Assembly: GCF_021223605.1 (NCBI RefSeq)
Contig: NZ_CP075175.1
Location: 3,427,501-3,491,500 of the forward strand
Source: Paenibacillus sp. 481
GTDB taxonomy: Bacteria > Bacillota > Bacilli > Paenibacillales > Paenibacillaceae
Length of the DNA stretch: 64,000 nucleotides
Reading direction: 5' to 3'
The translations under genes were made by a program, and so were the position numbers. The notes beneath the pieces are model-generated. The model did no database searches. It saw nothing but the letters and a program-made list of their open reading frames with translations, and was not told the origin of the DNA. Positions 2,416-21,724 of this stretch are shown here, piece by piece; the first letter of the stretch is position 1; each line of letters opens with the position of its first letter.

Positions 2416-2428
2416 GGAGGGGAAAGGT

Positions 2429-2938
2429 ATGAGCTGGGCCGCAGGAGCATGCGGTGTGCTATTAATAGCTGCATTTGTGACCGATGTACGGTCACGAGTT
2501 ATCCCAAATCGGCTTACAATAACGGCTTGTTGTGCAGCATTGCTGTTTCATCTTGTCACCGCCGGATTAGATGGCTTGTTACATAGTGTTGTAGGACTTA
2601 GTTGCGGATTTATTATTTTGTTGTTGCTATTTGTTTGTAGAGCGGTAGGTGCAGGTGATGTCAAGCTGTTCGCTGCAATTGGAGCTTGGATGGGCGCAGC
2701 AGTTACGTGGCATATTTTTATGTACGCCATTATTTATGGCGGTCTTATCGCCGCTTTTATTTTGTTATTTGGCCGTACAGGTCGCTTGCAGCGCCTTATG
2801 CTTACCTTCAAGCAAGCCATTTGGCTGCGTACATGGACACCGCTAAAGGAGGAAGCGCACAATCAGGCTACATTTCCGTTTATGTGGGCCGTACTTCCTG
2901 GAGCCGTGACAGCGGTCTATACAGGAGGAATCGTATAA
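2429..2938 (+). CDS. A24-family prepilin peptidase (CpaA/TadV type)
   Basis: 169-aa polytopic membrane aspartic peptidase with an ATG 13 nt after the TadE-like stop and a strong SD (aaggagggg). The two A24 catalytic aspartates are visible: D in the early VTDVRSRVIPN segment and D in the GAGD motif (GxGD) followed by VKLFAAIGAW. The N-terminal methylase domain of PilD/ComC enzymes is absent, as expected for short CpaA/TadV peptidases that cleave Flp-type prepilins. It should process the TadE-like protein encoded just upstream. The tight spacing with the flanking genes indicates one operon running through to the FHA gene. Confidence 0.85.
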   Translation: MSWAAGACGVLLIAAFVTDVRSRVIPNRLTITACCAALLFHLVTAGLDGLLHSVVGLSCGFIILLLLFVCRAVGAGDVKLFAAIGAWMGAAVTWHIFMYAIIYGGLIAAFILLFGRTGRLQRLMLTFKQAIWLRTWTPLKEEAHNQATFPFMWAVLPGAVTAVYTGGIV

Positions 2939-2962
2939 ATTGCCTTTGGGGAGGGATACGCG

Positions 2963-4747
2963 GTGTATGGCTTTCGGGCTGATTTTTTATACGAGGGCAA
3001 GGCCATTATGGCGCTAACTCGGGACGGTTCGTTTCATGCTGATGATCTGGATAATCATCAAGTTAACATGCTTAAACATAACCGAATACCCCATTTGCTG
3101 CCGATGGACATCAGAATTGTCGATTATGACGTTAGGCTTCTGTATGATATTAGCGGTAAAAAAATGCTGCACCATATGCTTAAGGGAGCTACTTTAACGA
3201 GTGTGCAATTTTATGAATGGATGCTCCAACTTGTACGAATCTTAGAAGATTGCCAAGCTTATTTTTTGCATCCTAATCATATGCTTTTGCATGAGCAGTA
3301 TGTTTTTGTGAGCCAAGAAAGCCCGGGAGCAGAGCTTTATGTAACTTATGTTCCTACAACGGAGGGGCTTCACCCGAGGGCTGGAATGGAAGGTTTACGT
3401 AGGATGGGTACATTAATGTCTTTAAGTGTTAGTCGTTGGGAAGGCAACGGTTTTCAGCGTTTGAATCAACTGTTATGTGATGAAATAAGCTCTTTATCGG
3501 ATGTGCGTTGTTTGTTGCAAACGCTCATTGTGGAGCCTGTTTCAAGCTCGGTGCCGGTAGGGGAAGCGAGCTATTCAAGTTACTCGAGTCATTCAAATCA
3601 TTCGAGTTACAGTTCGAATTCGCCTGAAAATAAGGGGCACCATGTAATCGGAATGAATGTTGTACCCGTACGTGATGAGTTTAAACACGGTTATGCTAAG
3701 AAAGCAGATAGTCATTTTAATGAATTAGCGTTTGGTAGTAAATTCGAAAAAACAGAAAAGTTCGGCAGCTATTATGAAGTTCCAGTACAAGAACCAGTAC
3801 AAGAATCAACACAAGAATCAGTACGAGCACCAGCACCAGTAGCACCGGTAGCATCAAAGCGACTATCAGAATCAGAATCGAAATCAGAATCCAAGCACAG
3901 CCTAAGTCAAAGTCCCGCTATTTGTGCGGCTGTATTGGTGCTAATATGTGCTATTGGCTGGAAATTCGGCTATTTGGATCGACCCTCTTCAACATCTTTA
4001 ATGTTTAGTAGCATTTGGAGTATTCTTGCCGTCTTTGCAGGTTGGGGTTGGATGACAAATGGATGGGAAAAATGGAGAGGGAACGCAACGAACTCAACTG
4101 ATATTAATGTAGCGGAACGACAAGCTCATTATGCTCGGACAAGGGCGTCTTCATCAGATAAATCCTCGGACAAACCACTGGTCAAGGAGTCGGAGTTTCA
4201 AGGCGCTTTCAGTGATATTGAACGGGAGCAAAGGGATGGTGAGCTATATCGGCCATGGCAGTCGGAAGCGACACATTTGGTCGATTCAAACCGATATTAT
4301 GAGTCTTTGCAAAGGCAGACGACCGTATTAGGTAATCATTCTACGGATTCGACAACTGTGCTAGATGAAGCGACGTTTCCAATGCATACACAGTCTTTGA
4401 GCGGGCAGCAGCCTATCGTTCGGCAGCCTTATCTTATAAGGGATTCGGATCAGAGTTTGCCGTCTGAAGCGAATAGTAGGGAAATACCTATCAGGCTTGA
4501 TTGTTCTCCGTTTGTTATAGGCAGGGCAGAGCAAGGTGTGAACTATCGAGACGAGCGATCGGGTGTGTCCAAAATGCACTGCGAATTCGAGCTTACTTCA
4601 GAAGGAGGCTGCTTCGTTCGTGATCTTGGCTCCAAAAACGGAATGGACATTCAGGGAGAGCAACTTATACCGTATAAATCCTATGAATTAAAGCACGGAG
4701 ATAGCTTTAAAATAGCGGGAAACAGCTATCATTATCGTGAGCATTAA
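2963..4747 (+). CDS. Membrane FHA-domain protein with DUF6382-like N-terminus
   Basis: 594 aa from a GTG at 2963, with SD ggggaggg 7 nt upstream. Residues 1 to about 170 match the type of domain usually labelled DUF6382 in Bacillales FHA proteins. Residues about 200-315 are a Ser- and Glu-rich linker with imperfect repeats (SYSSHSNHSS; EPVQE/ESTQE/ESV). Two hydrophobic helices lie at about 319-340 and 349-369. The C-terminal FHA domain (about 498-590) keeps the phosphothreonine-binding hallmarks: G520-R521, the S-x-x-H segment in SGVSKMHCEF, and GSKNG. FHA domains bind phospho-Thr, so a Ser/Thr kinase partner is expected. A kinase/phosphatase pair lies about 10 kb downstream in the T7SS locus. 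It is the last gene of the Tad-like operon. Confidence 0.85.
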   Translation: MYGFRADFLYEGKAIMALTRDGSFHADDLDNHQVNMLKHNRIPHLLPMDIRIVDYDVRLLYDISGKKMLHHMLKGATLTSVQFYEWMLQLVRILEDCQAYFLHPNHMLLHEQYVFVSQESPGAELYVTYVPTTEGLHPRAGMEGLRRMGTLMSLSVSRWEGNGFQRLNQLLCDEISSLSDVRCLLQTLIVEPVSSSVPVGEASYSSYSSHSNHSSYSSNSPENKGHHVIGMNVVPVRDEFKHGYAKKADSHFNELAFGSKFEKTEKFGSYYEVPVQEPVQESTQESVRAPAPVAPVASKRLSESESKSESKHSLSQSPAICAAVLVLICAIGWKFGYLDRPSSTSLMFSSIWSILAVFAGWGWMTNGWEKWRGNATNSTDINVAERQAHYARTRASSSDKSSDKPLVKESEFQGAFSDIEREQRDGELYRPWQSEATHLVDSNRYYESLQRQTTVLGNHSTDSTTVLDEATFPMHTQSLSGQQPIVRQPYLIRDSDQSLPSEANSREIPIRLDCSPFVIGRAEQGVNYRDERSGVSKMHCEFELTSEGGCFVRDLGSKNGMDIQGEQLIPYKSYELKHGDSFKIAGNSYHYREH

Positions 4748-7577: not shown

Positions 7578-7715
7578 TGATATTCAGCGGATGTGTGACC
7601 CTACGCAATACGCACAACGTATCTCAAGTTGTGCAGTTGGTCGCACACCGCTGTTTTATAATTTATTATAGCGCTTCGCGACTAAATGCAGTGCATATAA
7701 CGGAGGAGTATGGCA

Positions 7716-8621
7716 ATGACACATCAGCATACTATGATTCATGCCCGCAAGCAGGCGGACGAAAGCCGACGCAATCGCGGACGCATGCTCATTTCATGTC
7801 CAGATCGTGCAGGCATTGTAAACGCAGTTTCACGTTTTTTGTTCGATCACGGAGCTAACATTGTACAATCGGATCAATATACGATGGACCCAGAGGGTGG
7901 CATGTTCTTCATGCGCATTGAATTTGATGTAGAAGAACTAGAGCAGCATATTACGAAGCTAAACGATGATTTTGAAAGTATTGCGGCTGAGTTCAAAATG
8001 GATTGGCGCATATCCCGTGTAAGTGAGAAAAAGCGCCTCGCTATTTTTGTTTCGAAAGAAGATCACTGCTTGGTTGAGTTGCTGTGGCAATGGCAAGCTG
8101 GGGATCTGGATGCGGATATTGCGATGGTTGTTAGTAATCATCCGGACATGCGCGAATATGTGGAGTCATTCGGTATTCCGTATGTGCACATTCCCGTGAC
8201 GAAGGATACGAAACCAGAGGCAGAGCGCTTGCAGTTGGAGGCGATTGAAGGGAAAGTGGATCTCATTATTTTGGCACGCTACATGCAAATTATTCCGCCA
8301 AAATTTATTGAACATTACCCGAATCGAATTATTAACATCCACCATTCGTTCTTGCCAGCATTTATCGGAGGTAAGCCATACCATCAAGCGTATACGCGTG
8401 GCGTTAAGTTGATTGGGGCTACAGGGCATTACGTAACTGAAGAACTTGATGGCGGTCCGATCATTGAGCAGGATGTGGAGCGTGTTACACACAGAGCTGA
8501 TGTGGATGAATTAAAGCGCATTGGGCGCACGATTGAGCGTGTGGTATTGGCTCGTGCTGTGCATTGGCATATTGAGGACCGGATTTTGGTGCATCAAAAT
8601 AAGACGGTTGTGTTTAACTAA
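7716..8621 (+). CDS. purU: Formyltetrahydrofolate deformylase
   Basis: 301 aa from the ATG at 7716. An ATG six bases upstream (7710) is only 3 nt from the SD GGAGG (7702-7706), whereas 7716 is 9 nt away, so I prefer the latter. The N-terminal ACT domain begins with RMLISCPDRAGIVNAVSRFL. The C-terminal formyl-transferase-like domain contains the catalytic signature HHSFLPAFIGGKPYHQAY and the ATGHYVTEELDGGPIIEQD segment. The enzyme hydrolyses 10-formyl-THF to formate and THF and balances one-carbon pools. It is a single gene followed by a clear terminator. Confidence 0.93.
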   Translation: MTHQHTMIHARKQADESRRNRGRMLISCPDRAGIVNAVSRFLFDHGANIVQSDQYTMDPEGGMFFMRIEFDVEELEQHITKLNDDFESIAAEFKMDWRISRVSEKKRLAIFVSKEDHCLVELLWQWQAGDLDADIAMVVSNHPDMREYVESFGIPYVHIPVTKDTKPEAERLQLEAIEGKVDLIILARYMQIIPPKFIEHYPNRIINIHHSFLPAFIGGKPYHQAYTRGVKLIGATGHYVTEELDGGPIIEQDVERVTHRADVDELKRIGRTIERVVLARAVHWHIEDRILVHQNKTVVFN

Positions 8622-8735: not shown

Positions 8736-8764
8736 TTGTTAACACGTTCTTCGTATAGTAATAT
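8736..8764 (+). promoter_or_regulatory. Candidate sigma-A promoter of the T7SS operon
   Basis: TTGTTA (8736-8741), a 17-nt spacer and TAATAT (8759-8764), about 77 nt before the essC start. Matched by eye to the sigma-A consensus. It is the best candidate between the purU terminator and essC. Confidence 0.35.
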
Positions 8765-8840
8765 AGTGGGATGAAAAGGGTAAAATAACCATCTCCGCAG
8801 ATTCATAGAACGAAGACATCAAGATTAGGGGGATTCTTGG

Positions 8841-11800
8841 ATGAGTCGCATATCGTATCAACGCTCTCCTCGTGTGGTGCCTCCGATTGCACGCACCGAG
8901 GTCGAAATTTTCAAACCGTCCATGGCGCCACCTGCCCCTGTTTTTAATACGGTTATGATCGTTATTCCATTGTTGATGACGGTGGCAGGGGCGGCAGCCA
9001 TGTTTTATTTTTCACGTAGAATGCAAAATAGTCATTTTCTCGTCTTTCAAATCATTTCATTAGCAACGGTAGCTGTTTCGTATACGCTGCCTTTTTTTAT
9101 GTACATACAACAAAAAAAGCAATTTCGCAACCAAATGACTGAGCGTGAACGCGCTTATAAGCAGCAGCTAGAGCGACATCAGCAGGAGCTCACCGAGCAA
9201 AGTGATGAATTTCGTCAGCGTATGCTGAAGACCCATCCATCTGCACAACAGTGTAGCAACATCGCAGAGCAGCTAGAAAGAGAGCTGTGGGAGCGCGGTC
9301 CAACTGAAGAAGACTTTATGTCTGTTCGAATCGGGCTTGGCGACGTCAAGTTTCCAGTACGAGTAAAGGCGCCGAGAATGGACGGCTATGACCAAGATCC
9401 GCTTCTGGATGAAGCACTACACCTTCAGGCGCAATTTGATGTTGTACCCCATACGCCTGTTCTAGTAGATTTCAAAAAAAGTAGAGTAGTAGGTTTGGTG
9501 GGCGACCGACAACGTGTGAACGGGGTTATTCGTTTTTTATTGATGCAATGTGCCGTCCACCATGCCCCAGATGAGCTTAAGTTAGCGGCTTTCTTTCGGG
9601 CGCATGAAGGGCCGCAGTGGGATTGGTTACGATGGCTTCCGCATACATGGAATGACAATCATTCATGGCGCATGGTGTGCAAGGAGTCCCATTATACGAA
9701 TCAGCAGCTGGAATGGCTGCATGCCGCACTGCAACGGCGAATTATGCAAAAAAAGTCCAGCAGCGACGCGAAGCTAATGTTGCCGCAGTGGTTGGTGCTT
9801 ATCACGGATTTACGCATGTTGGAGGATGAACCGCTGCTATCCTTGCTTTTGAAAGAAGCAAAAGGTTGTGGGGCAAGTACGCTTATTGTGGCTGATCGGA
9901 GAGAGCAATTGCCGAATGATTGTCAAATTATTATTGATGTTCACGCGGAAGACGAGGCACGGTTGATTCATACGGTGATGCAGGAGCTTGATCCGCAACG
10001 ATGGAGTCGTGATGTTGGCGATCCGCGGGCGTCGCTTTCTACTGGTGTAGAAAAAGTGGTGCCTGACAGCATTTCGGTCGAGGAAGCGAATCGGTTTGCA
10101 CGTAGGCTTGCGCCAATCGAGGTAAAGAAGGCAGCCGCAGAAGAGCTGCCAGATGTGCTGACGCTTATGGAACTGTTGCAGCTGCGCAACATGGAGGAAT
10201 GGGATGCGGCATCAAAATGGAATGCAAGCCGCTATCCGCTGACACTTCCAGCTGTTGTGGGAGTGCGTGGCGGCTCGAAACCAGTAGTGCTGAACATTCA
10301 CGATAAAATAGAGCGCAAAGGGCACGGGCCGCACGGTTTGGTAGCAGGAACGACAGGTTCGGGAAAAAGTGAGGCGATACAATCACTGATTGCTTCGCTT
10401 GCGGTCAATTATCACCCACATGATGTTGCCTTTATGCTGATCGACTATAAAGGTGGGGGCATGTCGAACGTATTTTTAGATCTTCCACACGTCATCGCGA
10501 CGGTGACGAATTTGGAGGAAGAAGGACTTATTGAGCGTGCAAAAATTTCGTTGCGTGCGGAGTTGGAACGCAGACAAAAGCTGTTTGTCGCCGCGGGCAA
10601 TGTCCAGCACATCGATGAATATTATGCTTCTTCACATAAAAGCACGTATCCGCTGCCACATTTGGTCATTATTATTGACGAGTTCGCCCAGCTAAAAAAA
10701 GACGAGCCTGAATTTATGAGCGAGCTTGTCAGCATCGCTGCGATTGGCCGTACGCTCGGGGTGCATCTGCTGTTAGCAACGCAGAAACCAAGCGGTGTTG
10801 TGGACGATAAAATATGGAGCAACTCCCGTTATCGCATCTGCTTGCGCGTTCAAGATGAGGCGGATAGTCGGGATATGCTGAAGGTGCCGAATGCGGCGTG
10901 GCTAACAACGCCCGGCAGAGGATACATTCAGGTGGGCAGCAATGAATGGTTTGAGATGGTCCAGTTCGCGTGGAGTGGGGCGCCTTATTATCCAAACGCA
11001 AGTGAGGAGCAGGAGGCGCGAATCCATGTGTCTACGCTTGATTTGAACGGGGAAGCGGAAAGAGTGAAGCTTCCGAATAACCAGACGGATCAAGCGATAC
11101 AGACAACACAGGCGGTACAGAAGCACAAGCAACTGCAAGTCATTATTGATCAGTTATCTCGCTCCGCAGTACGTCATGGCATAGAGCGCTTACCGGGGCC
11201 ATGGCTACCGCCATTGCCACAGCAAATTGCGCTGCAAGCGGTACGCGGTGGGGAGGAGCCGACTTGGCTACAGCCTATTATCGGACTTGTAGACGATATG
11301 GCCCAGCAACAACAGCCTTCACTGCGTATGGATTTATCAACAGGCCATTGGCTTATTTACGGTATGCCAGGAACAGGTAAGACGACGCTTGTGCAGACGT
11401 TTATAACGTCGCTTGCGCTGGATCATAGCCCACAAGATGTGCACGTGTACGTGCTGGACATGGGTAGAATGCTGAGTGATTTTTCATTGCTGCCGCAGGT
11501 TGGCGATGTCATTCAGGAAGATGAAGCGGAGAAGATTGTACGCTTCATCAAAATGATGCAGCAAGAATTGATGCACCGTAAACAATTGTTCGCTGAAATC
11601 GGGGCAAAGACACTTGCTTCGTATCGCGAAGAGACGGGAATATGTTTACCGGCATGGGTCGTTGTAATAGACGGATATGCGACTTTCCGCAGCTCTTATC
11701 CGGAAGAAAATGATCGTTTAGAGCCGCTGCTCCGCGAGGGCGCTAACTTTGGCCTTTACGCTGTTATTACAGCGAATCGGCTATCTGACGTGCAAGAACG

Positions 11801-12902
11801 AATGCGCAGCAATTTTGCTAACGCGATGACATTGATGCTCGCCGATAGCAGCGATTATTATTACGCTGTCGGAAGGCCGTCCAAGCTTCCGTCCCACATG
11901 CCGGAAGGACGAGGCTTCGTTAAAGGTAAAGTACCGCCGCTTATGTTTCAGGCGGCCTTGCCGATCGAGGCTGAACAGGATACGTCACGGGCAAGGCAAT
12001 TACGCAAGTCGTTTGAACTTCTGAACGAACAATGGACAGGAGCACGTCCAGCTAAGATTGCGACCTTGCCAGCTCGGATATCGCTCTCCGATCTCATCGA
12101 TCAGCCGCTAGACGAATCTCCATCTGTGCAATGCGCAACACACAGAGGCGAAGGCGATGTGGTACTTGGCTGGATGGCAGAGGAACTGACCCCCTTCCAT
12201 ATTCGTTTGGAGGACGGGCCATATTTCATGGTTGCTGGAAGAGTGGAGAGCGGTAAGACTACGGCGCTCCTTACTTGGTCGTTATCGTTAGCAGCGCGGA
12301 TGCATCCTGAACAGTTGAAGTTGCACCTCGTTGATTTTAGCCGAATGAACGAAGGGTTGTACGGGTTAAGACATTTGAAGCATGTACGTGGCTGTGCTAC
12401 GGACTTGGCTGCTTTTGAACAAATGTTAGAGCAAATAGAGCAGGAGATGGAACAAGCTATTGCTGCATGGGAAGTGACGGAACAACCAGCAGAGCTGCCT
12501 GTCACCGTACTCGTTATGGACGATTTAGATTTAATCGCGAAGCAGCTTGCGGGTTCTTTTCAGGCCGCGCAACGTCTTGAAACGTTGTTAAAGCGAGGGC
12601 GCGGCAAAAACTTTTACATTATCGCAGCGGCAGGTGCCAATGATTGGATTCAACTGTGGGATTCTTGGGTAAAAGAGATTAAGTCCACCCCTATCGGCAT
12701 TTTGCTAGGGACGACCGATTTGAATGACTTACAGCTATTCCAATTCAAGCTGCCATATGAACAATGCAACAAAGTGTTGGAGCCAGGTGAAGGATTTTAC
12801 GTCAAGCGCAAAGCAGTACGTATGAAAATGGCTGTGCCAGATCCGAATGTGAATCATGTTGTACAGCAGCTAAATACGAAGCAGTTGTCTCCAAGTTTGT
12901 AG
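8841..12902 (+). CDS. essC: Type VII secretion ATPase EssC (YukBA-like), lacking N-terminal FHA domains
   Basis: 1353 aa, ATG after SD agggggat. It is the membrane-bound FtsK/SpoIIIE-type motor of T7SSb that exports WXG100 proteins. Two transmembrane helices lie at about 35-57 and 64-88. Three tandem ATPase domains follow, with Walker A loops at 503-510 (GTTGSGKS), 841-848 (GMPGTGKT) and 1133-1140 (GRVESGKT). The first has a full Walker B (VIIIDE, D613-E614). In the second and third domains the equivalent strands read VVVIDGYA and VLVMDDLD, so the usual DE is changed, consistent with less active ATPases. Staphylococcal EssC starts with about 190 residues of two FHA domains; here only about 34 residues precede the first helix, so the FHA module is missing. 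First gene of a dense operon. Confidence 0.93.
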   Translation: MSRISYQRSPRVVPPIARTEVEIFKPSMAPPAPVFNTVMIVIPLLMTVAGAAAMFYFSRRMQNSHFLVFQIISLATVAVSYTLPFFMYIQQKKQFRNQMTERERAYKQQLERHQQELTEQSDEFRQRMLKTHPSAQQCSNIAEQLERELWERGPTEEDFMSVRIGLGDVKFPVRVKAPRMDGYDQDPLLDEALHLQAQFDVVPHTPVLVDFKKSRVVGLVGDRQRVNGVIRFLLMQCAVHHAPDELKLAAFFRAHEGPQWDWLRWLPHTWNDNHSWRMVCKESHYTNQQLEWLHAALQRRIMQKKSSSDAKLMLPQWLVLITDLRMLEDEPLLSLLLKEAKGCGASTLIVADRREQLPNDCQIIIDVHAEDEARLIHTVMQELDPQRWSRDVGDPRASLSTGVEKVVPDSISVEEANRFARRLAPIEVKKAAAEELPDVLTLMELLQLRNMEEWDAASKWNASRYPLTLPAVVGVRGGSKPVVLNIHDKIERKGHGPHGLVAGTTGSGKSEAIQSLIASLAVNYHPHDVAFMLIDYKGGGMSNVFLDLPHVIATVTNLEEEGLIERAKISLRAELERRQKLFVAAGNVQHIDEYYASSHKSTYPLPHLVIIIDEFAQLKKDEPEFMSELVSIAAIGRTLGVHLLLATQKPSGVVDDKIWSNSRYRICLRVQDEADSRDMLKVPNAAWLTTPGRGYIQVGSNEWFEMVQFAWSGAPYYPNASEEQEARIHVSTLDLNGEAERVKLPNNQTDQAIQTTQAVQKHKQLQVIIDQLSRSAVRHGIERLPGPWLPPLPQQIALQAVRGGEEPTWLQPIIGLVDDMAQQQQPSLRMDLSTGHWLIYGMPGTGKTTLVQTFITSLALDHSPQDVHVYVLDMGRMLSDFSLLPQVGDVIQEDEAEKIVRFIKMMQQELMHRKQLFAEIGAKTLASYREETGICLPAWVVVIDGYATFRSSYPEENDRLEPLLREGANFGLYAVITANRLSDVQERMRSNFANAMTLMLADSSDYYYAVGRPSKLPSHMPEGRGFVKGKVPPLMFQAALPIEAEQDTSRARQLRKSFELLNEQWTGARPAKIATLPARISLSDLIDQPLDESPSVQCATHRGEGDVVLGWMAEELTPFHIRLEDGPYFMVAGRVESGKTTALLTWSLSLAARMHPEQLKLHLVDFSRMNEGLYGLRHLKHVRGCATDLAAFEQMLEQIEQEMEQAIAAWEVTEQPAELPVTVLVMDDLDLIAKQLAGSFQAAQRLETLLKRGRGKNFYIIAAAGANDWIQLWDSWVKEIKSTPIGILLGTTDLNDLQLFQFKLPYEQCNKVLEPGEGFYVKRKAVRMKMAVPDPNVNHVVQQLNTKQLSPSL

Positions 12903-12993
12903 AGGCTGGTCTTATATTCGATTCGTTAAATCCGCCTTGTACAATATATTTCAATCATTCACACATCATTTACGAACTCGAGGAGGTTCCACC

Positions 12994-13269
12994 ATGTCAC
13001 AACGCATTATGATTACACCGGAAGAAATTGATGGAGTAGCAGGTCAATTCAAGCGTGCTAGCTCAGAAAGCCAAAGTTTAATTGGCAATCTAAATACACA
13101 AATTAATGGCTTGCATGGTCGTTGGGAAGGGATGACACAGCAGCGTTTCTTCCAAGAATTCGAGCAAGCGAAAAAGAACATGAACGAGTTCGTTACGTTG
13201 TTGGAAAGCATCAACACGCAACTGACGCAAATTTCGACGCGCTTCCGTCAGGCGGATCATCAAGGATAA
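12994..13269 (+). CDS. WXG100-family T7SS substrate (EsxA/YukE-like)
   Basis: 91 aa from the ATG at 12994, preceded by a near-ideal SD (gaggaggttcc). A longer in-frame start at 12937 lacks an SD. The protein is a short helical hairpin with the WXG turn at residues 44-46 (W-E-G, in GRWEGMTQQ) and heptad-like helices on either side. Its length and its position right after essC are diagnostic of the secreted WXG100 protein. The C-terminus ends F-R-Q-A-D-H-Q-G; F-x-x-x-D resembles the Y-x-x-x-D/E export signal with Phe in place of Tyr. It probably forms homodimers and is both substrate and stimulator of EssC. A hairpin after the gene may allow a higher dose than the downstream genes. Confidence 0.93.
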   Translation: MSQRIMITPEEIDGVAGQFKRASSESQSLIGNLNTQINGLHGRWEGMTQQRFFQEFEQAKKNMNEFVTLLESINTQLTQISTRFRQADHQG

Positions 13270-13302
13270 CATTCGTTATCGTGTGTTCATTAACTATTAG
13301 AG

Positions 13303-13333
13303 GCCAGGTGCATAACGACCTGGCTTCTTCATT
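13303..13333 (+). terminator. Attenuator-like hairpin after the WXG100 gene
   Basis: GCCAGGT (13303-13309) pairs with ACCTGGC (13318-13324) across an 8-nt loop and is followed by TTCTTCATT. The T-tract is interrupted, so this looks like a leaky terminator or mRNA stabiliser between the WXG100 gene and the VWA gene, 30 nt before the latter's start. Confidence 0.5.
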
Positions 13334-13362
13334 GAAGTTGAAGGACAGAAGGAGCTTAACAG

Positions 13363-14118
13363 ATGACTTATCGTATTCAGGCAACGCAAACGACGCCAGC
13401 ACTCATCATTTATTTACTCGATATAAGCGGCTCAATGAATTTAGAATGTCATGGTCAGCGACGATTGGATCTGGTGATGCAAGCGTTGCAGGCTGCTATT
13501 CGCCAAATGGTATTTCGCTCGACGAAAGGAACACGGATGTCGCCTAGGTACCGTGTGGCGATGCTTGCCTATAGCGATGAAGTATATGATCTGCTTGGTG
13601 GAGTAAAGCGAATTGATGAACTGATACATATGGGCGGAATTCCTGCCGTCACCCCAATGAAATTTACGAATACCGCTTTGGCCTTTGAACAGGCCGAAAA
13701 AATATTAAAGACAGAATGGCCGCAACTGCAACAATGTCCGGCCCCACTTATTTGCCATCTAACCGACGGTAGTCATACAGGGGAGGACCCTGAACCTATA
13801 GCAAAACGAATTATGGATATGCAATTGGCGGACGGTAACGTCCTTATTTCTAATATATATATTTCTGAATCTATGACTGTTCGTTCACCAATAGATGTTA
13901 AGAGATGGACAGGTGTACTGCCGACAGAAACGTTTGACGAAGAAACCGCGGACAAGCTGAAGCGGATGTCTTCTGTCATCCCAGAAAGCTATCGCGATAT
14001 GATGCTAGAATCGTCCTATTCGATCGGATCAGGTGCACTCATGTTGTTCCCTGGTAACAGTCCAGAGCTGATTTCGCTAGGGTTTCAAATGTCGGCTGCA
14101 ACGCCAGTTCGAATTTAA
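13363..14118 (+). CDS. VWA-domain protein (TerY-like) of the T7SS locus
   Basis: 251 aa, ATG with SD aaggag 8 nt upstream. The whole protein is one von Willebrand factor A domain with an intact MIDAS: D20-x-S22-x-S24 (LLDISGSMN), the T in KFTNTALAF and the D in HLTDGSHTGED. It has no signal peptide or membrane helix, so it should be cytoplasmic. Stand-alone VWA proteins of this size resemble TerY, which occurs with a PP2C phosphatase and a kinase (TerY-P triad) in Ter-type systems. Both partners are encoded next to it here. Likely role (inference): a metal-dependent scaffold that regulates the kinase/phosphatase pair or the secretion motor. Confidence 0.85.
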   Translation: MTYRIQATQTTPALIIYLLDISGSMNLECHGQRRLDLVMQALQAAIRQMVFRSTKGTRMSPRYRVAMLAYSDEVYDLLGGVKRIDELIHMGGIPAVTPMKFTNTALAFEQAEKILKTEWPQLQQCPAPLICHLTDGSHTGEDPEPIAKRIMDMQLADGNVLISNIYISESMTVRSPIDVKRWTGVLPTETFDEETADKLKRMSSVIPESYRDMMLESSYSIGSGALMLFPGNSPELISLGFQMSAATPVRI

Positions 14119-14138
14119 AATTGGAGGCGTTGTAAAAG

Positions 14139-15014
14139 GTGCAACAACAAACCGATGTATGGCGTTTAAGCGCTTCCGGAGATATTCCAATTACTTTCAC
14201 TCAACAACCATGGCCGCTTCGGTATGCGATGAACCGTGCCGCAGAAAGTCAGCAGTGCAATGAACCAAGTCAAGATTGTTTGCATGTGACGGGTGACAAG
14301 GATGCACTTGCTTTTGCGATTTGCGATGGAGTGAGCTTATCCTTCTGTGGGCAAGTTGCAGCACAATTGCTTGCTGGACGTTTGTCCGATTGGCTGTATC
14401 ACGCGTGCGAAAGTGGTAAAATGGACCAAAGGCAAGTTGTGAATAAGCATGATGAGCATGATCGCTTATTACGGCACGTTGTCAGTTGGCTGGATCAATT
14501 GCGCAGTGAAGGTTTACAGCTCGTGCAAGCGTATGAGCTCCCGTCACAAATGAATCCAATCGTGCGCGATGTACTCGAAGAAAAGCGACGTCACGGCAGT
14601 GAAGCTGCTTTCGTGGCAGGTGTCATTCAGAAGTACCCGGAGAGCGACGAATGCGGTTTGTTTTTATGCTGGCAAGGCGATATCCGCATTCGATTGTGGA
14701 TACAGGACGAGGAATGGATGCTGCGCAAGCGCGAGACGATGTGTACCGAGGAACGTTGGTCGACGAACAAAGGCAGTATCGGAAACATACATACGAGTTA
14801 TTATCGCTGGTCCGTTCAAGAATGGAAGCAGGCGAAGCTAGTTATTTATTCAGATGGTCTAGCGTTGTTAGATTCATTTGAGCAAGTGCCTGATCCTAAC
14901 CAGTTAGCTGCTGCTATGAGCAAGGCGCTAGGGCTGGCGAACAGTGATGACATGACATACTTGGAAATTAGTTTAAGTAGTCTGGCAAATGAAGAGGTGC
15001 AGAGATGTCCTTAA
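14139..15014 (+). CDS. PP2C-type Ser/Thr protein phosphatase of the T7SS locus
   Basis: 291 aa from a GTG at 14139 (SD ggagg, 11 nt). PP2C landmarks: the GDKDALAFAICDGVS segment with metal-ligand D63-G64, the VIYSDGLALL motif in the second half, and the terminal NSDDMTYLEI stretch that supplies the last metal-binding Asp. It should be a soluble Mn2+/Mg2+-dependent phosphatase that reverses Ser/Thr phosphorylation. It lies 21 nt after the VWA gene and overlaps the EsaB-like gene by 10 nt, so the genes are translationally coupled. The natural partner is the membrane kinase two genes downstream. Confidence 0.88.
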   Translation: MQQQTDVWRLSASGDIPITFTQQPWPLRYAMNRAAESQQCNEPSQDCLHVTGDKDALAFAICDGVSLSFCGQVAAQLLAGRLSDWLYHACESGKMDQRQVVNKHDEHDRLLRHVVSWLDQLRSEGLQLVQAYELPSQMNPIVRDVLEEKRRHGSEAAFVAGVIQKYPESDECGLFLCWQGDIRIRLWIQDEEWMLRKRETMCTEERWSTNKGSIGNIHTSYYRWSVQEWKQAKLVIYSDGLALLDSFEQVPDPNQLAAAMSKALGLANSDDMTYLEISLSSLANEEVQRCP

Positions 15015-15337
15015 CGATTGTCACGCTAAAATGGAAGCCCGTTACGACGACGGTGGATGTGCAGCTATCTGCGCATATCTCATTAGAAGATATGTTGCCT
15101 TATATGCTAACTGCTTTAGGTGTCCCTCTATACGAAGAGTATGGTCATGTACGTTATGACTATGAGTCTAGCTGGGATGCAGAACGCTGGGAGCCATTAG
15201 ATGAGCGGCGATCTCTTCGCGATCAGAACGTGTACGACGGGATGTACATTCGCTTGACGAAATACGTGTCCTATTCCAGTTCCTTGTTGGATCAACCTGC
15301 ATGGATTCATGATAGGCTACCCTTATTTGAGTTATAA
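15005..15337 (+). CDS. EsaB/YukD-family ubiquitin-like protein
   Basis: 110 aa, ATG inside the end of the PP2C gene. The N-terminal ~80 residues have a beta-grasp pattern (TIVTLKWKP, VDVQLSAHISLEDMLPYMLTALGV, then short strands ending in VYDGMYIRLTKY). The closing L-x-D-x-x-x-x-D-G-x-x-I/L-R-L segment is typical of EsaB/YukD, the small cytoplasmic ubiquitin-like subunit of T7SSb. A ~25-residue hydrophobic/aromatic tail follows. In classical loci this gene lies between the WXG100 gene and essB/yukC. Here it separates the phosphatase from the kinase. Confidence 0.8.
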   Translation: MSLTIVTLKWKPVTTTVDVQLSAHISLEDMLPYMLTALGVPLYEEYGHVRYDYESSWDAERWEPLDERRSLRDQNVYDGMYIRLTKYVSYSSSLLDQPAWIHDRLPLFEL

Positions 15338-15379
15338 CGCGTATTCAATACTATTTCGTAAGATATGGGAGAAAGTTGT

Positions 15380-17680
15380 ATGCCATTTCAACCAAATGTA
15401 AACGACGAACTTCATATAGGTGAACATAGCTACGTGGTTGAGCCACATCCGTTGTCTGCCGATGTGCCTTATGGGCAAGAGGGTAGGCAAGGGACGGTAT
15501 ATCGGCTTAAATCGACCGAACTAGCGACAGCGTGGGCGCTTAAAGTGTTTCGCCCTAATTTTCGCCATCCTGCACTTGTGTATCAGGCAGAGCAATTGGC
15601 TCCTTATGCCAAGCTGCCTGGCATGCAAGTGTGCAAGCGCCAGATCATGACACCGCAGCATCAATTTTCACTGATCTCGCAACATCCAGAGCTGTTATAT
15701 GCGGTCCTTATGCCGTGGATTGAAGGCCCGACATGGATGGATGTGCTGCTTGATAAGCGGCCATTGTCCCGCGACACAACGTTGCTTATTGGTGAGGCTG
15801 CGGCTATGTCACTGGCTACTTTGGAGCAGCGCGGCATGGCTCATGGAGATTTGTCGGCAGCGAACGTGATTCTTGCTGGCTTAAATGAAGCGAATGAAGT
15901 AGAGCAGCGTGGAAACGAGGGGATCGTTTCCTTTGTTGACGTTGAGCAGATGTGTGCTCCGGGGTTGTACAAGCCGGAAATTATGCCAACAGGGACATCT
16001 GGCTACGCTCGCAAAAGCGGGACGGCATATGCGTGGAACTCGATGATGGATCGTTTTTCAGGTGGTGTTATGCTGGCGGAGATGCTTGCATGGTGTGATG
16101 AAGGAGTACGGAAGGCCGCGTGGGGCGAAAGTTACTTCAATCCTGAGCTAATGACGCTGGATCAGGAACGTACGGATATTTTGCTGCGTGCATTAAGTGT
16201 ACATTACGGGGAAACGACGGCATTTCTATTTCAGCGTGTGTGGGGAAGCACGGACAATACGCAGTGCCCAACCTTCGGGGAATGGGCTGTTGCATTGAAG
16301 TCTAAACTGCTGAGTGCGGAAGAGGATGAGGCAGATAGAGTGGTTTCTGGTGCTGTTACTGATGCTGTTGCTCAGCGTGAGCGGCATCTTGTAGGGCTGG
16401 TCACGATGACAGAGCAGGCAGCTGCCAAGAGTAATGAAGTAGAGCATAATGGTGAGCGTGATGATGCTGAATCTAACAATAAACATAGCGTTATATATAA
16501 AGCTGTGCATGGTGATGACAACCAAACTGGTAACTCCAGTACTGCGGCAGGGGCACAAACTCAGCGACAATCGCAAGCGCAGGCACAGGCACAGGCAGAG
16601 GCGCAGCAAAGAATGGATTTCACTACCGATATTCGAATTGCACAGCAAGATGAAAAAGATGGACGTTGGGAGGCGGCTGTTAAACGCTACGAACAGCTAC
16701 TGCTACGTATTCCGAATGCGTCTACTTCAGACATCGGAGTCGAAATTCAAATTGCTTTGCAAGAAGCAAAGCAAGCCATCGAACAAAGGGAAGCGCAATA
16801 TCAAGCCGAACTAGCCGTTGCGTTAGCGAAGCGCCAGCGGTTACAGCGGGTAGTAGGTCTTGCAGGAGCGATATGTTTGCTGCTTGGCGGCGCGGGCGGC
16901 ATCTTGTATTGGGCACCTTGGAACTCACTTGTTAGCGAACAAGTGGTGGTGACAAATGTTTCAAGCACGTCGTCAGCGGGCCAAGTGAACGGTGCAACGA
17001 ACAACCCAGCGCAAGACCAAGCGCAAGACGAAGCGAAGAGTCAAACGAAGGGCCAAACAAAGAGCGAAACAAAGAGTCAAGTGACAGGGGAAACGGCTTC
17101 GAATAACTCGTCCAAGGACGGAAGCGAGCGTCCGGATGTCTCTCCCCCGCCAATAAAGAAAGAGACTCGTACGAGCAATGATAAACCGATTAATCCAACG
17201 AAGCCGGATGCGCAGAACAAGCCAGCCAACCAATCCGACACCAAAAAATCGGGCGCCCTACCTTCATCTACATCGAACAAGTACGCTTCTAATGACGCGA
17301 AATCTAATCCATTAAAGCGCAATGTAGAGTCGAAGTCGGAGCCTAAAGCGAAATCAAAGCCGGCAAGAGAAGCGGAATCAAAGAACACAACAAACACCAA
17401 GAACACAACAACAGTAAAACAAACGAAACAACCTGAACAAATCAAGCCGGCTAAAAAAGAACCAACCAAACAAGAACCGACCAAACAAGAACCATCGAAA
17501 TCCGATACGCAGCAAACAAAGAAGAACAAAATAAAAGCGTTGGAAGACAGCCTTTTACAGGCCTTTAACGTCGAGGACGACACAGAAAAGGCGATCAAGG
17601 TGGCGAAGCAGCTTAAGCAACTCGATCCGACTAACACTTTAGCCAGTAAAATGTTGAAGGAACTGGTCGGTGGATCGTAG
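15380..17680 (+). CDS. Membrane-anchored protein kinase, candidate EssB counterpart
   Basis: 766 aa from the ATG at 15380, which has SD gggagaaag; the ATG at 15365 has none. Residues about 30-320 are a protein-kinase fold: Gly-rich loop GQEGRQGTVY, VAIK-type K55 (ALKVF), catalytic loop H155-G-D157-LSAANV, and D187-V-E where DFG is expected. Lys, Asp and Asn are kept, so activity is plausible, but the DFG change leaves doubt. Then come a QA-rich linker, a helical TPR-like segment, one membrane helix (about 491-511), a K/T/Q/S-rich tail of about 190 residues with KQEPT repeats, and a short terminal helix pair. Kinase domain inside, one helix, tail outside is the plan of EssB/YukC, whose N-domain is a pseudokinase. 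No separate essB is present. Confidence 0.8.
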   Translation: MPFQPNVNDELHIGEHSYVVEPHPLSADVPYGQEGRQGTVYRLKSTELATAWALKVFRPNFRHPALVYQAEQLAPYAKLPGMQVCKRQIMTPQHQFSLISQHPELLYAVLMPWIEGPTWMDVLLDKRPLSRDTTLLIGEAAAMSLATLEQRGMAHGDLSAANVILAGLNEANEVEQRGNEGIVSFVDVEQMCAPGLYKPEIMPTGTSGYARKSGTAYAWNSMMDRFSGGVMLAEMLAWCDEGVRKAAWGESYFNPELMTLDQERTDILLRALSVHYGETTAFLFQRVWGSTDNTQCPTFGEWAVALKSKLLSAEEDEADRVVSGAVTDAVAQRERHLVGLVTMTEQAAAKSNEVEHNGERDDAESNNKHSVIYKAVHGDDNQTGNSSTAAGAQTQRQSQAQAQAQAEAQQRMDFTTDIRIAQQDEKDGRWEAAVKRYEQLLLRIPNASTSDIGVEIQIALQEAKQAIEQREAQYQAELAVALAKRQRLQRVVGLAGAICLLLGGAGGILYWAPWNSLVSEQVVVTNVSSTSSAGQVNGATNNPAQDQAQDEAKSQTKGQTKSETKSQVTGETASNNSSKDGSERPDVSPPPIKKETRTSNDKPINPTKPDAQNKPANQSDTKKSGALPSSTSNKYASNDAKSNPLKRNVESKSEPKAKSKPAREAESKNTTNTKNTTTVKQTKQPEQIKPAKKEPTKQEPTKQEPSKSDTQQTKKNKIKALEDSLLQAFNVEDDTEKAIKVAKQLKQLDPTNTLASKMLKELVGGS

Positions 17681-17748: not shown

Positions 17749-18492
17749 ATGAAAAAGTTTATAGCTGGATTTGTGGCAGGAGGGCTACTGTTTGGTACGG
17801 TTGCAGCTTTTGCGCAAGATTTAAAAAATGTCTTGTTCGATATTAGCTCGGTTCAAGTAGATGGTGTTGAAGTGAATATGAAATCGAGTAATAAACCGTT
17901 TACTTTCAACGGCTACGCTTATATTCCAAGCTATATGCTTCCAGATATGGGTTACGTTGCGACACGCTCCCAAGATAAATCGGGTGTCGTATTGCGAAGT
18001 GTCGGACAGGCCTATTATCCGATCAGCGAAGATGCAAAAATTGCGGAAGCAAACGTGATTCCCGTTAAGACCATTTTGAATTCCCACGCATTTGTAAACG
18101 TTCAATATAAGAGCAAGGAACTGCTGGAAGACGATCAAAAAAAACCGTATGAGAACTACATCCACATCTCGCTCGACAATAATCGAGACAGTGCAAGTTA
18201 TTCAGATATCACGATCCATTTAGATGAAAAATTTCGGCGCTTCGGGGCTAAAGCACAATTGCTAAAACAAGCTTCCGATGCAAAGTTAAACGGGGCCGTG
18301 ACCGTATCTGCATATGTTGTGAATGATCGCAATCAAGAGACGCTAGTGAAATCATGGACCCTCGATGATAACCGTTTATCTGAAGATATGACGTTGTCGT
18401 TGCGTTACGCTAAATCGGTTCGCTTTAAAGTGACAACGACACATAAAGGGCAAATCAAATTTGCGCTGTTAAATCCTACGATTGTAAAGTAG
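17749..18492 (+). CDS. Secreted copper-amine-oxidase-type stalk protein
   Basis: 247 aa, ATG with SD agaggggga. A classical signal peptide is visible (MKKFIAGFVAGGLLFGTVAAFA, cleavage near AFA|Q). Next comes a stalk domain like the copper amine oxidase N-terminal domain: VQVDG, FNGYAYIPSYMLPDMGY, then a second beta-rich half of unknown function. Such proteins are abundant on the cell surface of Paenibacillus and are usually non-enzymatic. It lies 68 nt after the kinase gene and ends in a strong terminator, so it may be the last gene of the T7SS transcript, acting outside the cell. A direct T7SS role is inference from position only. Confidence 0.75.
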   Translation: MKKFIAGFVAGGLLFGTVAAFAQDLKNVLFDISSVQVDGVEVNMKSSNKPFTFNGYAYIPSYMLPDMGYVATRSQDKSGVVLRSVGQAYYPISEDAKIAEANVIPVKTILNSHAFVNVQYKSKELLEDDQKKPYENYIHISLDNNRDSASYSDITIHLDEKFRRFGAKAQLLKQASDAKLNGAVTVSAYVVNDRNQETLVKSWTLDDNRLSEDMTLSLRYAKSVRFKVTTTHKGQIKFALLNPTIVK

Positions 18493-18542: not shown

Positions 18543-18577
18543 AAAGCCTGTTCCCGTTAGAGGGGCAGGCTTTTTTG
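18543..18577 (+). terminator. Intrinsic terminator ending the T7SS operon
   Basis: AAAGCCTGTTCCC pairs with GGGGCAGGCTTT around a GTTAGA loop, followed by six T residues. Confidence 0.85.
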
Positions 18578-19702: not shown

Positions 19703-21724
19703 ATGACTTTAAACCAAGCTAACATTGATCAATTGTCAGTTGCAGCGATTCGTACGCTTGCAATTGATGCAATAGAAAAAGCAAAATCAGGTCACCCAGG
19801 TATGCCAATGGGTGCAGCTCCGATGGGCTACCACCTGTTCGCGAAAGCAATGACTCATAACCCAGTTAACCCTATGTGGATTAACCGCGACCGCTTCGTA
19901 TTGTCTGCAGGTCACGGCTCCATGTTGCTATATAGCATGCTTCACTTGAGCGGCTACGACTTGCCGTTGGAAGAGATTAAGAACTTCCGTCAATGGGGCA
20001 GCAAAACGCCAGGCCACCCAGAGTTCGGTCACACAGCTGGTGTTGACGCAACTACTGGTCCGCTTGGACAAGGCTTTGCTATGTCCGTAGGTATGGCTAT
20101 GGCTGAAGCGCAGCTTGGCGCTACTTACAACCGTGAAGGCTACGATGTTGTTGACCACCACACATATGTTATTTGTGGCGATGGCGACTTGATGGAAGGT
20201 GTATCTAGCGAAGCGGCTTCGCTTGCAGGTCACTTGAAATTGGGCAAGCTTGTTGTGCTTTACGATTCCAACGACATCTCCTTGGATGGCGAATTGAACT
20301 TGTCGTTCAGCGAAAATGTACGTCAACGCTTTGATGCTTATGGCTGGCAAACGCTTGTCGTTGAAAACGGCACAGACTTGGCTGCTATCGCTCAAGCAGT
20401 TGAGCAAGCGAAACAAGAGACGAACAAGCCTACATTGATCGAAGTGAAGACAGTTATCGGCTATGGTAGCCCGAACAAGCAAGGTAAAGGCGGCCACGGC
20501 GGTACTCACGGTTCTCCACTCGGCGCAGAAGAAACAAAGTTGACTAAAGAATATTACAACTGGCCACATGCTGACTTCGAAGTTCCGACTGAAGTGTATT
20601 CCCACTTCGAAGAGAACGTGAAGCAAAAAGGTATCGTAGCTAACGATGCTTGGAACAGCATGTTCGCAGCTTACAAAAATGCTCATCCTGAGTTGGCACA
20701 GCAATTTGAGCTTGCTATCAATGGCCAATTGGCTGACAACTGGGATGCTGATCTTCCTAAATATGCAGCAGGCGACAGCGCTGTATCGACACGCGTAGCT
20801 TCTGGTAACGCGTTGAACGGCTTGGCGAAAAATGTTGCTCACTTGACAGGCGGTTCCGCTGACCTTGAGAGCTCGACAATGACGCATTTGAAAGGCTTGC
20901 CTGTATTCCGTCCAGGTAGCTACGAAGGCCGCAACATCTACTTCGGTGTGCGTGAATTCGCGATGGCTGCTGCGATGAACGGTATGGCTTTGCATGCCGG
21001 CGTTAAAGTATTTGGCGGTACGTTCTTCGTATTTACAGACTACTTGCGTCCAGCAGTGCGTTTGTCCGCATTGATGAAATCACCTGTCGTTTATGTATTG
21101 ACGCACGACAGTATCGCTGTTGGTGAAGATGGTCCAACGCACGAGCCGATCGAGCAGTTGGCTTCACTTCGTATCATCCCTGACTTGACAGTTATCCGTC
21201 CAGCTGACGGTAACGAAACGTCTGCAGCATGGGCATATGCGGTAGAGAACCAAGAGAATCCTGTTGCGCTCGTATTGACGCGTCAGAACTTGCCAATTCT
21301 TGATGCATCCGCAGAGCATGCACGCGAAGGTATCAAGCGTGGTGCATATGTTGTAGCCGACGCAGCTAACGGTCAGCCGCAAGCGCAAATTATTGCGACA
21401 GGCTCTGAAGTACAGCTTGCAGTTCGTGCTCAACAAGCACTTGCTGAAGAAGGCGTACAAGTACGTGTAATCAGCATGCCGAGCTGGGATTTGTTCGACA
21501 AGCAATCCCAAGAGTACAAAGATTCTGTCTTGTTGCCTAACGTTAAGGCACGCTTGGCAGTTGAAATGGCTCATCCGTTCGGATGGGAGCGCTTTGTTGG
21601 CGACCAAGGTAGCGTACTTGGTATCTCTACATTCGGCGCATCCGCTCCTGGCGACCGCGTAATGGCAGAGTACGGCTTCACAGTTGAGAACGTTGTGAGC
21701 CGTGTTAAAGCATTGCTTAAATAA
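19703..21724 (+). CDS. tkt: Transketolase
   Basis: 673 aa, ATG with SD gaaggagga. It is a thiamine-diphosphate enzyme of the non-oxidative pentose phosphate pathway that transfers two-carbon ketol units. Landmarks: [14 protein letters not shown], the ThDP-binding block [19 protein letters not shown] ending in SNDIS, the conserved [20 protein letters not shown], the pyrimidine-domain [13 protein letters not shown] and [16 protein letters not shown]. Length is normal for bacteria. The codon choice is noticeably more uniform than in the neighbours, consistent with high expression. It is transcribed alone, with ppnP following after a hairpin. Confidence 0.96.

What the first reader, a model, noticed from the sequence alone, without database searches (positions are those of the whole stretch)
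8841..17680. Reduced T7SS locus with a built-in kinase/phosphatase/VWA/ubiquitin-like module
The operon order is EssC, WXG100, VWA, PP2C, EsaB/YukD-like, membrane kinase. Classical T7SSb loci (B. subtilis yuk/yue, staphylococcal ess) carry EsaA, EssA and EssB; none is seen here. VWA plus PP2C plus kinase is the composition of the TerY-P triad of Ter-type systems, and kinase-phosphatase-FHA control is known for type VI secretion (PpkA/PppA/Fha). The inference is that this T7SS variant is switched by reversible Ser/Thr phosphorylation, with the VWA and ubiquitin-like proteins as adaptors. The gene content is directly visible; the control circuit is a hypothesis.
Basis: partly seen in the sequence, partly recalled or inferred. 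Interest (0 to 1): 0.78.

Follow-up and report, generated by a model that had tools for sequence, protein, structure and literature searches.

The report
Bacterial secretion machine with kinase module
A Paenibacillus-type bacterium carries a known kind of protein-export machine (type VII secretion, subtype c) with its own kinase, phosphatase and adaptor genes; what looks new is that its likely cargo and chaperone genes sit elsewhere in the genome as separate modules.

Summary
Window 8841-17680 encodes an FHA-less EssC, a WXG100, a vWA with intact MIDAS, a PPM phosphatase, a YukD-like protein and a membrane kinase whose catalytic residues are conserved in 35-36 of 36 homologues. EssB and EsaA were not found in the genome. 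The system was published in 2024 as T7SSc (Garrett et al., PMC11217815), including the idea of phospho-control, so the headline is not new. 'Reduced' is partly wrong. The seventh T7SSc component, EspG-like TscG, is not at the locus, but two TscG-type genes lie elsewhere in the genome, each beside a WXG-fronted gene. One, about 73 kb away, belongs to a three-part module (WXG/glycine-zipper protein, EspG-like protein, DUF5381 protein). In Paenibacillus phyllosphaerae this module sits inside the T7SSc locus; in 18 of 20 other fetched places it is complete and stands alone. 34 of 35 genomes with this chaperone family carry the vWA gene. A seventh operon gene (17749-18492, predicted secreted) follows the kinase gene in 6 of 8 strong relatives. 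The locus lies between purU and tkt, which adjoin without TscC, TscD or this gene in 17 of 17 genus-mates fetched. The phosphorylation circuit remains a hypothesis; this ATPase has no FHA reader.

The parts
8739..8767 (+). promoter-like site (10 of 12 consensus positions) upstream of tscC; consensus match only
   Evidence: 13 such sites found in the region against 16.5 expected by shuffling, so not significant by itself
8841..12902 (+). TscC: EssC/EccC-type FtsK-family ATPase, 1353 aa, no FHA domains
   Evidence: TIGR03928 1182 bits; PDB YukB and EccC matches; the only full-length EssC match in the genome
12994..13269 (+). TscA: WXG100 protein, 91 aa (ORF opens at TTG 12937; ATG 12994 has an AGGAGG-type ribosome site)
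   Evidence: PF06013 76.3 bits, TIGR03930 86.8 bits
13363..14118 (+). TscE: vWA-domain protein, 251 aa, MIDAS intact; TerY-like
   Evidence: PF13519; MIDAS D, S, S and D each 38 of 38; PADLOC TerY 67 bits
14139..15014 (+). TscF: PPM/PP2C-type phosphatase, 291 aa
   Evidence: PF13672 23.8 bits, cut-off 24; four Asp conserved in 30 of 30
15005..15337 (+). TscB: YukD/EsaB ubiquitin-like protein, 110 aa, overlaps TscF by 10 bases
   Evidence: PF08817 30.3 bits
15365..17680 (+). TscD: membrane protein kinase, 771 aa; kinase domain about 1-330, helical linker, hydrophobic stretch about 496-514, then a low-complexity part that was not modelled
17749..18492 (+). w9: predicted secreted protein, 247 aa: N-terminal signal-like segment, then an NPCBM/CBM-like beta-sandwich; in relatives found directly after the TscD gene
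   Evidence: NPCBM E 0.0057, under cut-off; 6 of 8 strong relatives, window included, lie directly after TscD; model and fold search
18543..18573 (+). intrinsic-terminator-like hairpin (12 pairs) with T-run just after w9: probable end of the transcription unit
   Evidence: 21 such sites in the region on both strands, 11.1 expected; this one has the second-longest stem
7710..8621 (+). purU: left border of the insertion, conserved in the genus
19703..21724 (+). tkt (transketolase, named by eye): right border; lies 0.3-6.2 kb after purU with no TscC, TscD or w9 match in 17 of 17 genus-mates fetched

Best explanation
This is a T7SSc-type type VII secretion machine, gained between purU and tkt in this lineage. 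Shown: the gene set, conserved active-site residues, no EssB/EsaA found, the site without the locus in genus-mates, and chaperone/WXG genes elsewhere in the genome. Inferred: TscC is the export motor and TscB binds it; TscD takes the place of the EssB pseudokinase as membrane hub but is an active kinase; TscE (vWA) is a metal-dependent adaptor that links kinase and machine; TscF reverses the phosphorylation; w9 sits outside, near the outer part of TscD. Inferred too: the machine is generic, while cargo comes as separate modules, each with a WXG-fronted protein, its own EspG-like chaperone (TscG or TscG2) and, in one type, DUF5381 proteins that look like immunity proteins (1-4 copies). Absence of TscG from the locus therefore does not mean a reduced machine: TscG travels with cargo.
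For: Gene content and motifs. Match to the published T7SSc component list except TscG. One full-length EssC in the genome. TscG at 334 kb of the same genome with a WXG-fronted gene and a TscA-like WXG100. EspG-like + WXG-fronted + DUF5381 module about 73 kb downstream, in the same gene order as inside the P. phyllosphaerae locus. That chaperone family is in 35 of 388 genomes, 34 of which have TscE (hypergeometric 4e-14 overall, 1.5e-5 outside the genus in which nearly every genome has TscE; both computed with 394 genomes and with that genus's size read from handle numbers). Of the 18 genomes with both on one contig, 17 have 78 kb or more between them; in the other 16 they are on different contigs. 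18 of 20 fetched places carry all three module parts, none with a TscC/D/E/F match in the 7.5-9 kb looked at. Site without the locus in 17 of 17 genus-mates. 9 of 38 vWA homologues are 536-574 aa with kinase motifs in front of the vWA.
Against: No secretion, binding or phosphorylation was measured. TscG2 resembles canonical TscG only weakly (hhalign E 0.0036 but probability 9); its link to EspG rests on a sub-cut-off Pfam match of one member (E 3.5e-4), while the window genome's own member has no Pfam match, and on gene order. The window-genome and P. phyllosphaerae module proteins share only 24-28% identity; single-pair BLASTP is E 1e-5 (chaperone), 2e-6 (cargo, mainly the glycine zipper) and 0.049 (DUF5381). 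Modules and T7SSc are both concentrated in one genus, so much of the co-occurrence is shared ancestry. One genome (G135) has the module without TscE. The window ATPase has no FHA reader, and the phosphatase is absent from a sister arrangement. A 2026 paper reports that the modelled arrangement of a TscD differs from that of EssB-like TraF, unlike other TsxD kinases (passage of PMC13037476), which weakens the EssB comparison.
Confidence: 0.68

Rival explanations
1. The operon is a T7SS in the ordinary sense and TscD works only as a scaffold like EssB; kinase, phosphatase and vWA are a bystander TerY-P-like stress-signalling set that happens to be co-transcribed.
For: TscE scores as TerY; TerY-P triads travel with other systems (passages of PMC11090510); TscD has a topology like EssB by the authors' account.
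Against: TscC, TscD and TscE occur together in 76 of 80 loci and across several gene orders, the phosphatase in 75 of 80; TscD has no CxxC zinc-ribbon motif and is predicted membrane-bound; the kinase residues are conserved, which a mere scaffold would not need.
Confidence: 0.15
2. The locus is a decaying, cargo-less remnant: TscG and substrate genes were lost and the machine is no longer used.
For: No TscG and no substrate gene seen at the locus; patchy distribution in the genus: a full-length EssC match in 12 of 19 genomes, 2 of them of another type; long branch of the window's TscC (0.77).
Against: All seven ORFs are open and catalytic residues kept; chaperone and WXG genes exist elsewhere in the genome.
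Confidence: 0.1
3. Phospho-control works through the DUF6382-FHA protein encoded 4 kb upstream (2963-4747), giving a kinase-FHA circuit like that of T7SSe/f/j or of type VI secretion.
For: DUF6382 (E 1.2e-22) and FHA (E 1.2e-12) in one protein; this pair is a named component (TsxJ) of T7SSe, f and j; GR, S..H and NG residues of the phosphothreonine site can be read in the sequence printed (motif recalled).
Against: The gene closes a Tad-pilus cluster, and a relative of it lies upstream of purU in 17 of 17 genus-mates looked at, including those without TscE; two genes on the other strand and two on the same strand lie between it and tscC.
Confidence: 0.12

Closest known systems
T7SSc (Garrett, Higginson and Palmer 2024, PMC11217815; abstract, sections 7-9 and 14-16 and search passages read)
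   Same: FHA-less TscC, single TscA, TscB, kinase TscD, vWA TscE, PPM TscF; found in Paenibacillus; kinase active site conserved; no EssB or EsaA found
   Different: Gene order C-A-E-F-B-D instead of the commonest B-C-G-...-A-D-E-F; TscG not at the locus but elsewhere in the genome; extra predicted secreted gene w9 after TscD; TscC branches with a minority arrangement
T7SSb (B. subtilis yuk/yue, staphylococcal ess)
   Same: EssC, EsxA-like WXG100 and EsaB/YukD; membrane protein with kinase fold
   Different: No EssB, no EsaA, no FHA on EssC; kinase residues intact
TerY-P triad (definition read in passages of PMC11090510)
   Same: TerY-like vWA, PP2C-like phosphatase and a Ser/Thr-type kinase in one operon
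   Different: Kinase is predicted membrane-bound and has no zinc ribbon; attached to a secretion machine
Loci seen here with a kinase-vWA fusion (L084, L086 and similar)
   Same: vWA homologue, mostly with phosphatase and TscD, WXG pair, YukD-like protein (L084)
   Different: Their ATPase carries an FHA (Pfam in L084; S..H and NG motifs in 4 of 5 long TscC); the window ATPase has none

Membership tests
T7SSc | EssC-type ATPase without N-terminal FHA | tested here: met
   (no FHA match shown; match to YukB chain begins at chain residue 225)
T7SSc | single TscA (WXG100) and TscB (YukD-like) in the cluster | tested here: met
T7SSc | TscD kinase with conserved active site and transmembrane helix | tested here: met
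   (hydropathy)
T7SSc | TscE vWA and TscF PPM phosphatase | tested here: met
   the best TscE relative is 66% identical, the other listed strong ones mostly 56-62%
T7SSc | TscG (EspG-like) as seventh core component in the cluster | tested here: not met
   no TscG profile match at the locus; canonical TscG at 334 kb of the same genome and an EspG-like gene about 73 kb downstream. Hence filed as a variant of T7SSc, not as a textbook member
T7SSc | TscC clusters nearer to T7SSa EccC than to T7SSb EssC | not tested
   the tree holds no EccC or T7SSb EssC; TIGR03928 (EssCb) scores higher than TIGR03924/25
T7SSb | EssB pseudokinase | tested here: not met
   TIGR03926: 0 matches in own genome, B. subtilis control positive
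T7SSb | EsaA | tested here: not met
   only a sub-cut-off match, which is a YhgE/Pip protein
T7SSb | EssA | not tested
   no search made with its model
TerY-P triad | TerY-like vWA | tested here: met
   PADLOC TerY E 3.9e-19
TerY-P triad | PP2C-like phosphatase | tested here: inconclusive
   PADLOC PP2C E 0.0069; PF13672 0.2 bits under cut-off
TerY-P triad | kinase with C-terminal zinc ribbon | tested here: not met
   no CxxC in the whole 771-aa kinase

The most novel reading that the evidence does not exclude
T7SSc is a general export machine served by scattered, self-contained cargo modules. Each module brings a WXG-fronted membrane-active toxin, an EspG-like chaperone of its own and, in one large family, DUF5381 immunity proteins in 1-4 copies. 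TscG is thus a cargo adaptor and not a core component, and one TscC can be fed by several chaperone families coded up to megabases away.
Probability: 0.5. Interest if true: 0.58.

Novelty: new variant of a known kind. Interest (0 to 1): 0.42.

Why it matters
By its authors' account T7SSc has the most RefSeq sequences after T7SSa and T7SSb, yet the one paper that uses its name in the library searched is comparative. If cargo modules with their own EspG-like chaperones feed one machine, candidate T7SSc substrates can be found away from the locus, where a neighbourhood survey would not look. The kinase/phosphatase/vWA set with an FHA-less ATPase, beside relatives with a kinase-vWA fusion and an FHA-bearing ATPase, gives a natural pair for testing whether type VII secretion is switched by phosphorylation.

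Tried and rejected
Viral contigs: a scan with TscE found no relative. No tRNA and no Rfam family at gathering score in the window, so no tRNA-type integration site was seen. Remnant idea: I asked whether the orphan TscG-X-TscA near 333 kb marks the site of the genus's usual T7SSc locus; in tblastn of genus-mate loci the matches there were TscG, the WXG genes, frames lying over them and one 23-residue match of E 6e-4, no flanking gene, so this is not supported. EsaA candidate: rejected as a YhgE/Pip protein. FHA reader upstream: kept as a rival only, since it belongs to a Tad site found in the 17 genus-mates looked at (the Tad neighbour genes were matched in 16; the fragment of the 17th ends there). 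Two-row alignments A3-A5 of the satellite module are weak; the case rests on gene order and the wider search. The w9 model is of middling quality (mean pLDDT 70) and its PDB matches are generic beta-sandwiches with TM-score up to about 0.5. w9 has 8 further weak relatives (E 2e-17 to 8e-11); the two of these that I fetched have no T7SS gene nearby. 13 of the 156 TscE-positive genomes match only at E 7e-5 to 1e-7 and may be other TerY-like vWAs; none of them is among the 34 with the satellite chaperone. In one search only the best 80 of 141 loci were kept; for the structure alignment A8 I used 27 of the 76 kinase rows listed plus the window. Of the places found I fetched 20, from 19 genomes. 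One of the 20 has only the chaperone (L246) and one has chaperone and DUF5381 but only a 70-aa WXG frame (L247); in L248 the map dropped the chaperone, which one search shows to be there. My first kinase-motif pattern for the fusions found no HxD because it was too narrow; one search replaces it.
Full report
What is there. They encode an EssC-type ATPase without the N-terminal FHA part, a WXG100 protein, a vWA protein, a PPM-type phosphatase, a YukD-like protein and a membrane protein with a kinase domain. A seventh gene, 17749-18492, follows after 68 bases, and a 12-pair terminator-like hairpin stands right after it at 18543-18573. A promoter-like site lies before the first gene, but promoter-like sites are no more frequent here than in shuffles.

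Are the enzymes intact? In 36 TscD homologues the HxD histidine and aspartate, the catalytic-loop asparagine and the D and E of a D-x-E motif (in place of DFG) are present in 36, and the Lys in 35 (the remaining row has a gap). In 30 phosphatase homologues the four Asp looked at are conserved, with 'DD' where 'DN' is usual, and in 38 vWA homologues the MIDAS D, S, S and D are conserved (the motifs themselves are recalled). Short rows were left out before counting (kinases under 400 aa; phosphatases and vWA under 200 aa). The AlphaFold model of TscD 1-538 (mean pLDDT 79.6; residues 11-170 at about 85-97, parts of 171-270 at 49-85) matches solved protein kinases with target-normalised TM-scores of 0.47-0.69 in the 50 best shown; EssB is not among them.

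What it is called. The set is T7SSc of Garrett, Higginson and Palmer 2024 (PMC11217815; abstract, sections 7-9 and 14-16 and passages read). They list TscA-TscG, note the missing FHA domains, the active kinase, the PPM phosphatase and the vWA, and discuss regulation by phosphorylation. Of the papers searched for the word T7SSc this is the only one.

Relatives. TscE finds matches in 156 of 394 genomes of the family; 143 are strong and 13 weak. Of 141 related loci in named genomes the best 80 were kept: Paenibacillus almost throughout, also Cohnella, Brevibacillus laterosporus, Priestia koreensis and one record titled Neobacillus mesonae. Of these 80, 78 hold TscC, 78 TscD, 75 TscF, 70 TscB and 72 canonical TscG; 76 hold C, D and E, and 71 also F (flanks are cut at 10 kb and some contigs end, so these are lower bounds). 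The commonest order is B-C-G-WXG-WXG-D-E-F (37 of 80). A sister arrangement, C-A-E-B-D-G plus a 1600-aa WXG protein, lacks the phosphatase (5 of 80 have C, D, E but no F). Among the loci mapped the window order C-A-E-F-B-D-w9 is shared only with P. phyllosphaerae, which has four more genes between A and E. In the TscC tree the window groups with P. phyllosphaerae and the phosphatase-less arrangement (SH-aLRT 99), away from the usual arrangement found in 9 other members of its own genus; the window branch is long, so its place is uncertain.

Acquisition. Window purU and tkt are 11.1 kb apart. In 17 of 17 genus-mates fetched (of 18; the most fragmented, G010, has no full purU match and was left out) the two genes lie 0.3-6.2 kb apart with no TscC, TscD or w9 match on the fragment (the other T7SSc genes were not queried there). 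The 9 genus-mates with the usual T7SSc carry it elsewhere. The simplest reading is that the locus was gained at this site in the window's lineage.

Where is TscG? Not at the locus. In the genus, TscG is found in 10 of 19 genomes; in 9 it lies next to TscC and in the window's genome alone it lies by itself, at 334 kb, with a WXG-fronted gene and a TscA-like gene. A second place, at 3,518.9-3,521.6 kb, about 73 kb beyond the end of the locus and outside the window, holds a 385-aa WXG-fronted protein with a weak glycine-zipper match, a 340-aa protein without Pfam match and a DUF5381 protein. The same three, in the same order, are inside the P. phyllosphaerae locus, where the middle one matches EspG (PF14011, E 3.5e-4, under cut-off) and the third DUF5381 (E 1.7e-23). 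Identities are only 24-28%, so gene order carries much of the weight.

Satellite modules. A profile of the two middle proteins (here TscG2) finds matches in 35 of 388 family genomes, 34 of which have TscE. Of 20 places fetched, 18 show all three parts: a WXG-fronted protein of 295-373 aa, TscG2, and relatives of the DUF5381 pair (by a profile built from those two proteins) in 1 copy in 13, 2 in 3, 3 in 1 and 4 in 1; the order of the last two varies; 2 places are incomplete; none has a TscC, D, E or F match in the 7.5-9 kb looked at. Of 18 genomes with both on one contig, 17 have 78 kb or more between TscE and TscG2 (distances not corrected for circularity); the other 16 have them on different contigs. 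The co-occurrence is strong, but most cases are in one genus where nearly every genome has TscE; outside that genus 8 of 8 carry TscE. Variable copy number of a putative membrane protein next to a putative toxin is a pattern of immunity genes (recalled from other T7SS toxins). DUF5381 is named in no paper of the library; its Pfam model also finds a match in B. subtilis.

The extra gene w9. Its profile has 8 strong hits (E below 1e-50) and 8 weak ones in 388 genomes. Of the strong ones six (the window included) lie directly after a TscD gene, in two different locus types, and two stand alone in genomes where one search lists no TscE; two weak ones fetched also stand alone. The protein starts with a signal-like segment and ends in a beta-sandwich like carbohydrate-binding modules (moderate model). 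The likeliest place is outside the membrane beside the outer part of TscD; this is inference.

How it most likely works. Shown: parts, order, conserved catalytic residues, no EssB/EsaA found, separate chaperone/WXG genes. Inferred: TscC exports WXG-bearing cargo handed over by EspG-like chaperones; TscD anchors and phosphorylates part of the machine; TscE joins them; TscF reverses it. Support for a vWA-kinase partnership comes from 9 vWA homologues (of 38) that are 536-574 aa long; the one scanned by Pfam is a Ser/Thr kinase fused in front of the vWA (Pkinase E 4.7e-48), and LIDFG is present in 9 of 9 and RDLKP[SA]N in 8 of 9. In that group the ATPase of L084 has an FHA by Pfam, and S..H and NG motifs are present in 4 of the 5 TscC above 1380 aa, the fifth starting inside the domain. 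In the window the ATPase has no such reader, so if phosphorylation matters here it should act without an FHA on TscC, or through another reader. Of three FHA genes found in the genome the only one in the window (2963-4747) belongs to a Tad-pilus site that is there with or without T7SSc. A 2026 paper places TscD of P. azoreducens apart from the EssB-like arrangement of other TsxD kinases (passage only, PMC13037476).

Verdict. Ordinary in its headline (T7SSc is known and common in Paenibacillus), with three additions that I have not found in the sections read or by the searches (listings): detachable chaperone/cargo modules, the w9 gene, and the kinase-vWA fusion loci with FHA-bearing ATPase. 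Supplementary files of the 2024 paper could not be read, so they may show some of this.

Noticed in passing
window 54-4747: End of a Tad-pilus cluster (DUF5702, weak TadE-like match, prepilin peptidase) closed by a DUF6382-FHA protein, the architecture of TsxJ of T7SSe/f/j; a relative of the FHA protein lies upstream of purU in 17 of 17 genus-mates looked at.
   Followed up: partly
L084 9045-10688, L086 8988-10661 and similar loci (L078, L085, L087-L089, L091, L095): vWA homologues of 536-574 aa with a kinase domain in front of the vWA, mostly in loci with membrane TscD, phosphatase and WXG genes, and in L084 an FHA-bearing TscC; possibly a T7SS type of its own.
   Followed up: partly
L107 7390-10068 (outside the window, about 73 kb downstream of the locus): WXG/glycine-zipper protein, EspG-like protein and DUF5381 protein; beyond them, by eye only, CRISPR-repeat-like and type III Cas-like genes.
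   Followed up: partly
L106 10131-12005 (G000 near 333-335 kb): Orphan canonical TscG with a WXG-fronted 200-aa gene and a TscA-like WXG100, no machine gene nearby.
   Followed up: partly
L039 15534-16329 (P. alvei group genome): The TscF gene reads as two ORFs (139 and 135 aa), a frameshift or sequencing error.
   Followed up: no
L040, L041 (two genus-mates without TscE): A different EssC (36% identical to the window's) with WXG genes, after a row of genes that by size and order might be a Tad cluster; perhaps T7SSg/h.
   Followed up: no
L086 7961-8936: Two DUF5085 genes beside the kinase-vWA fusion gene; function unknown, conserved position not examined.
   Followed up: no
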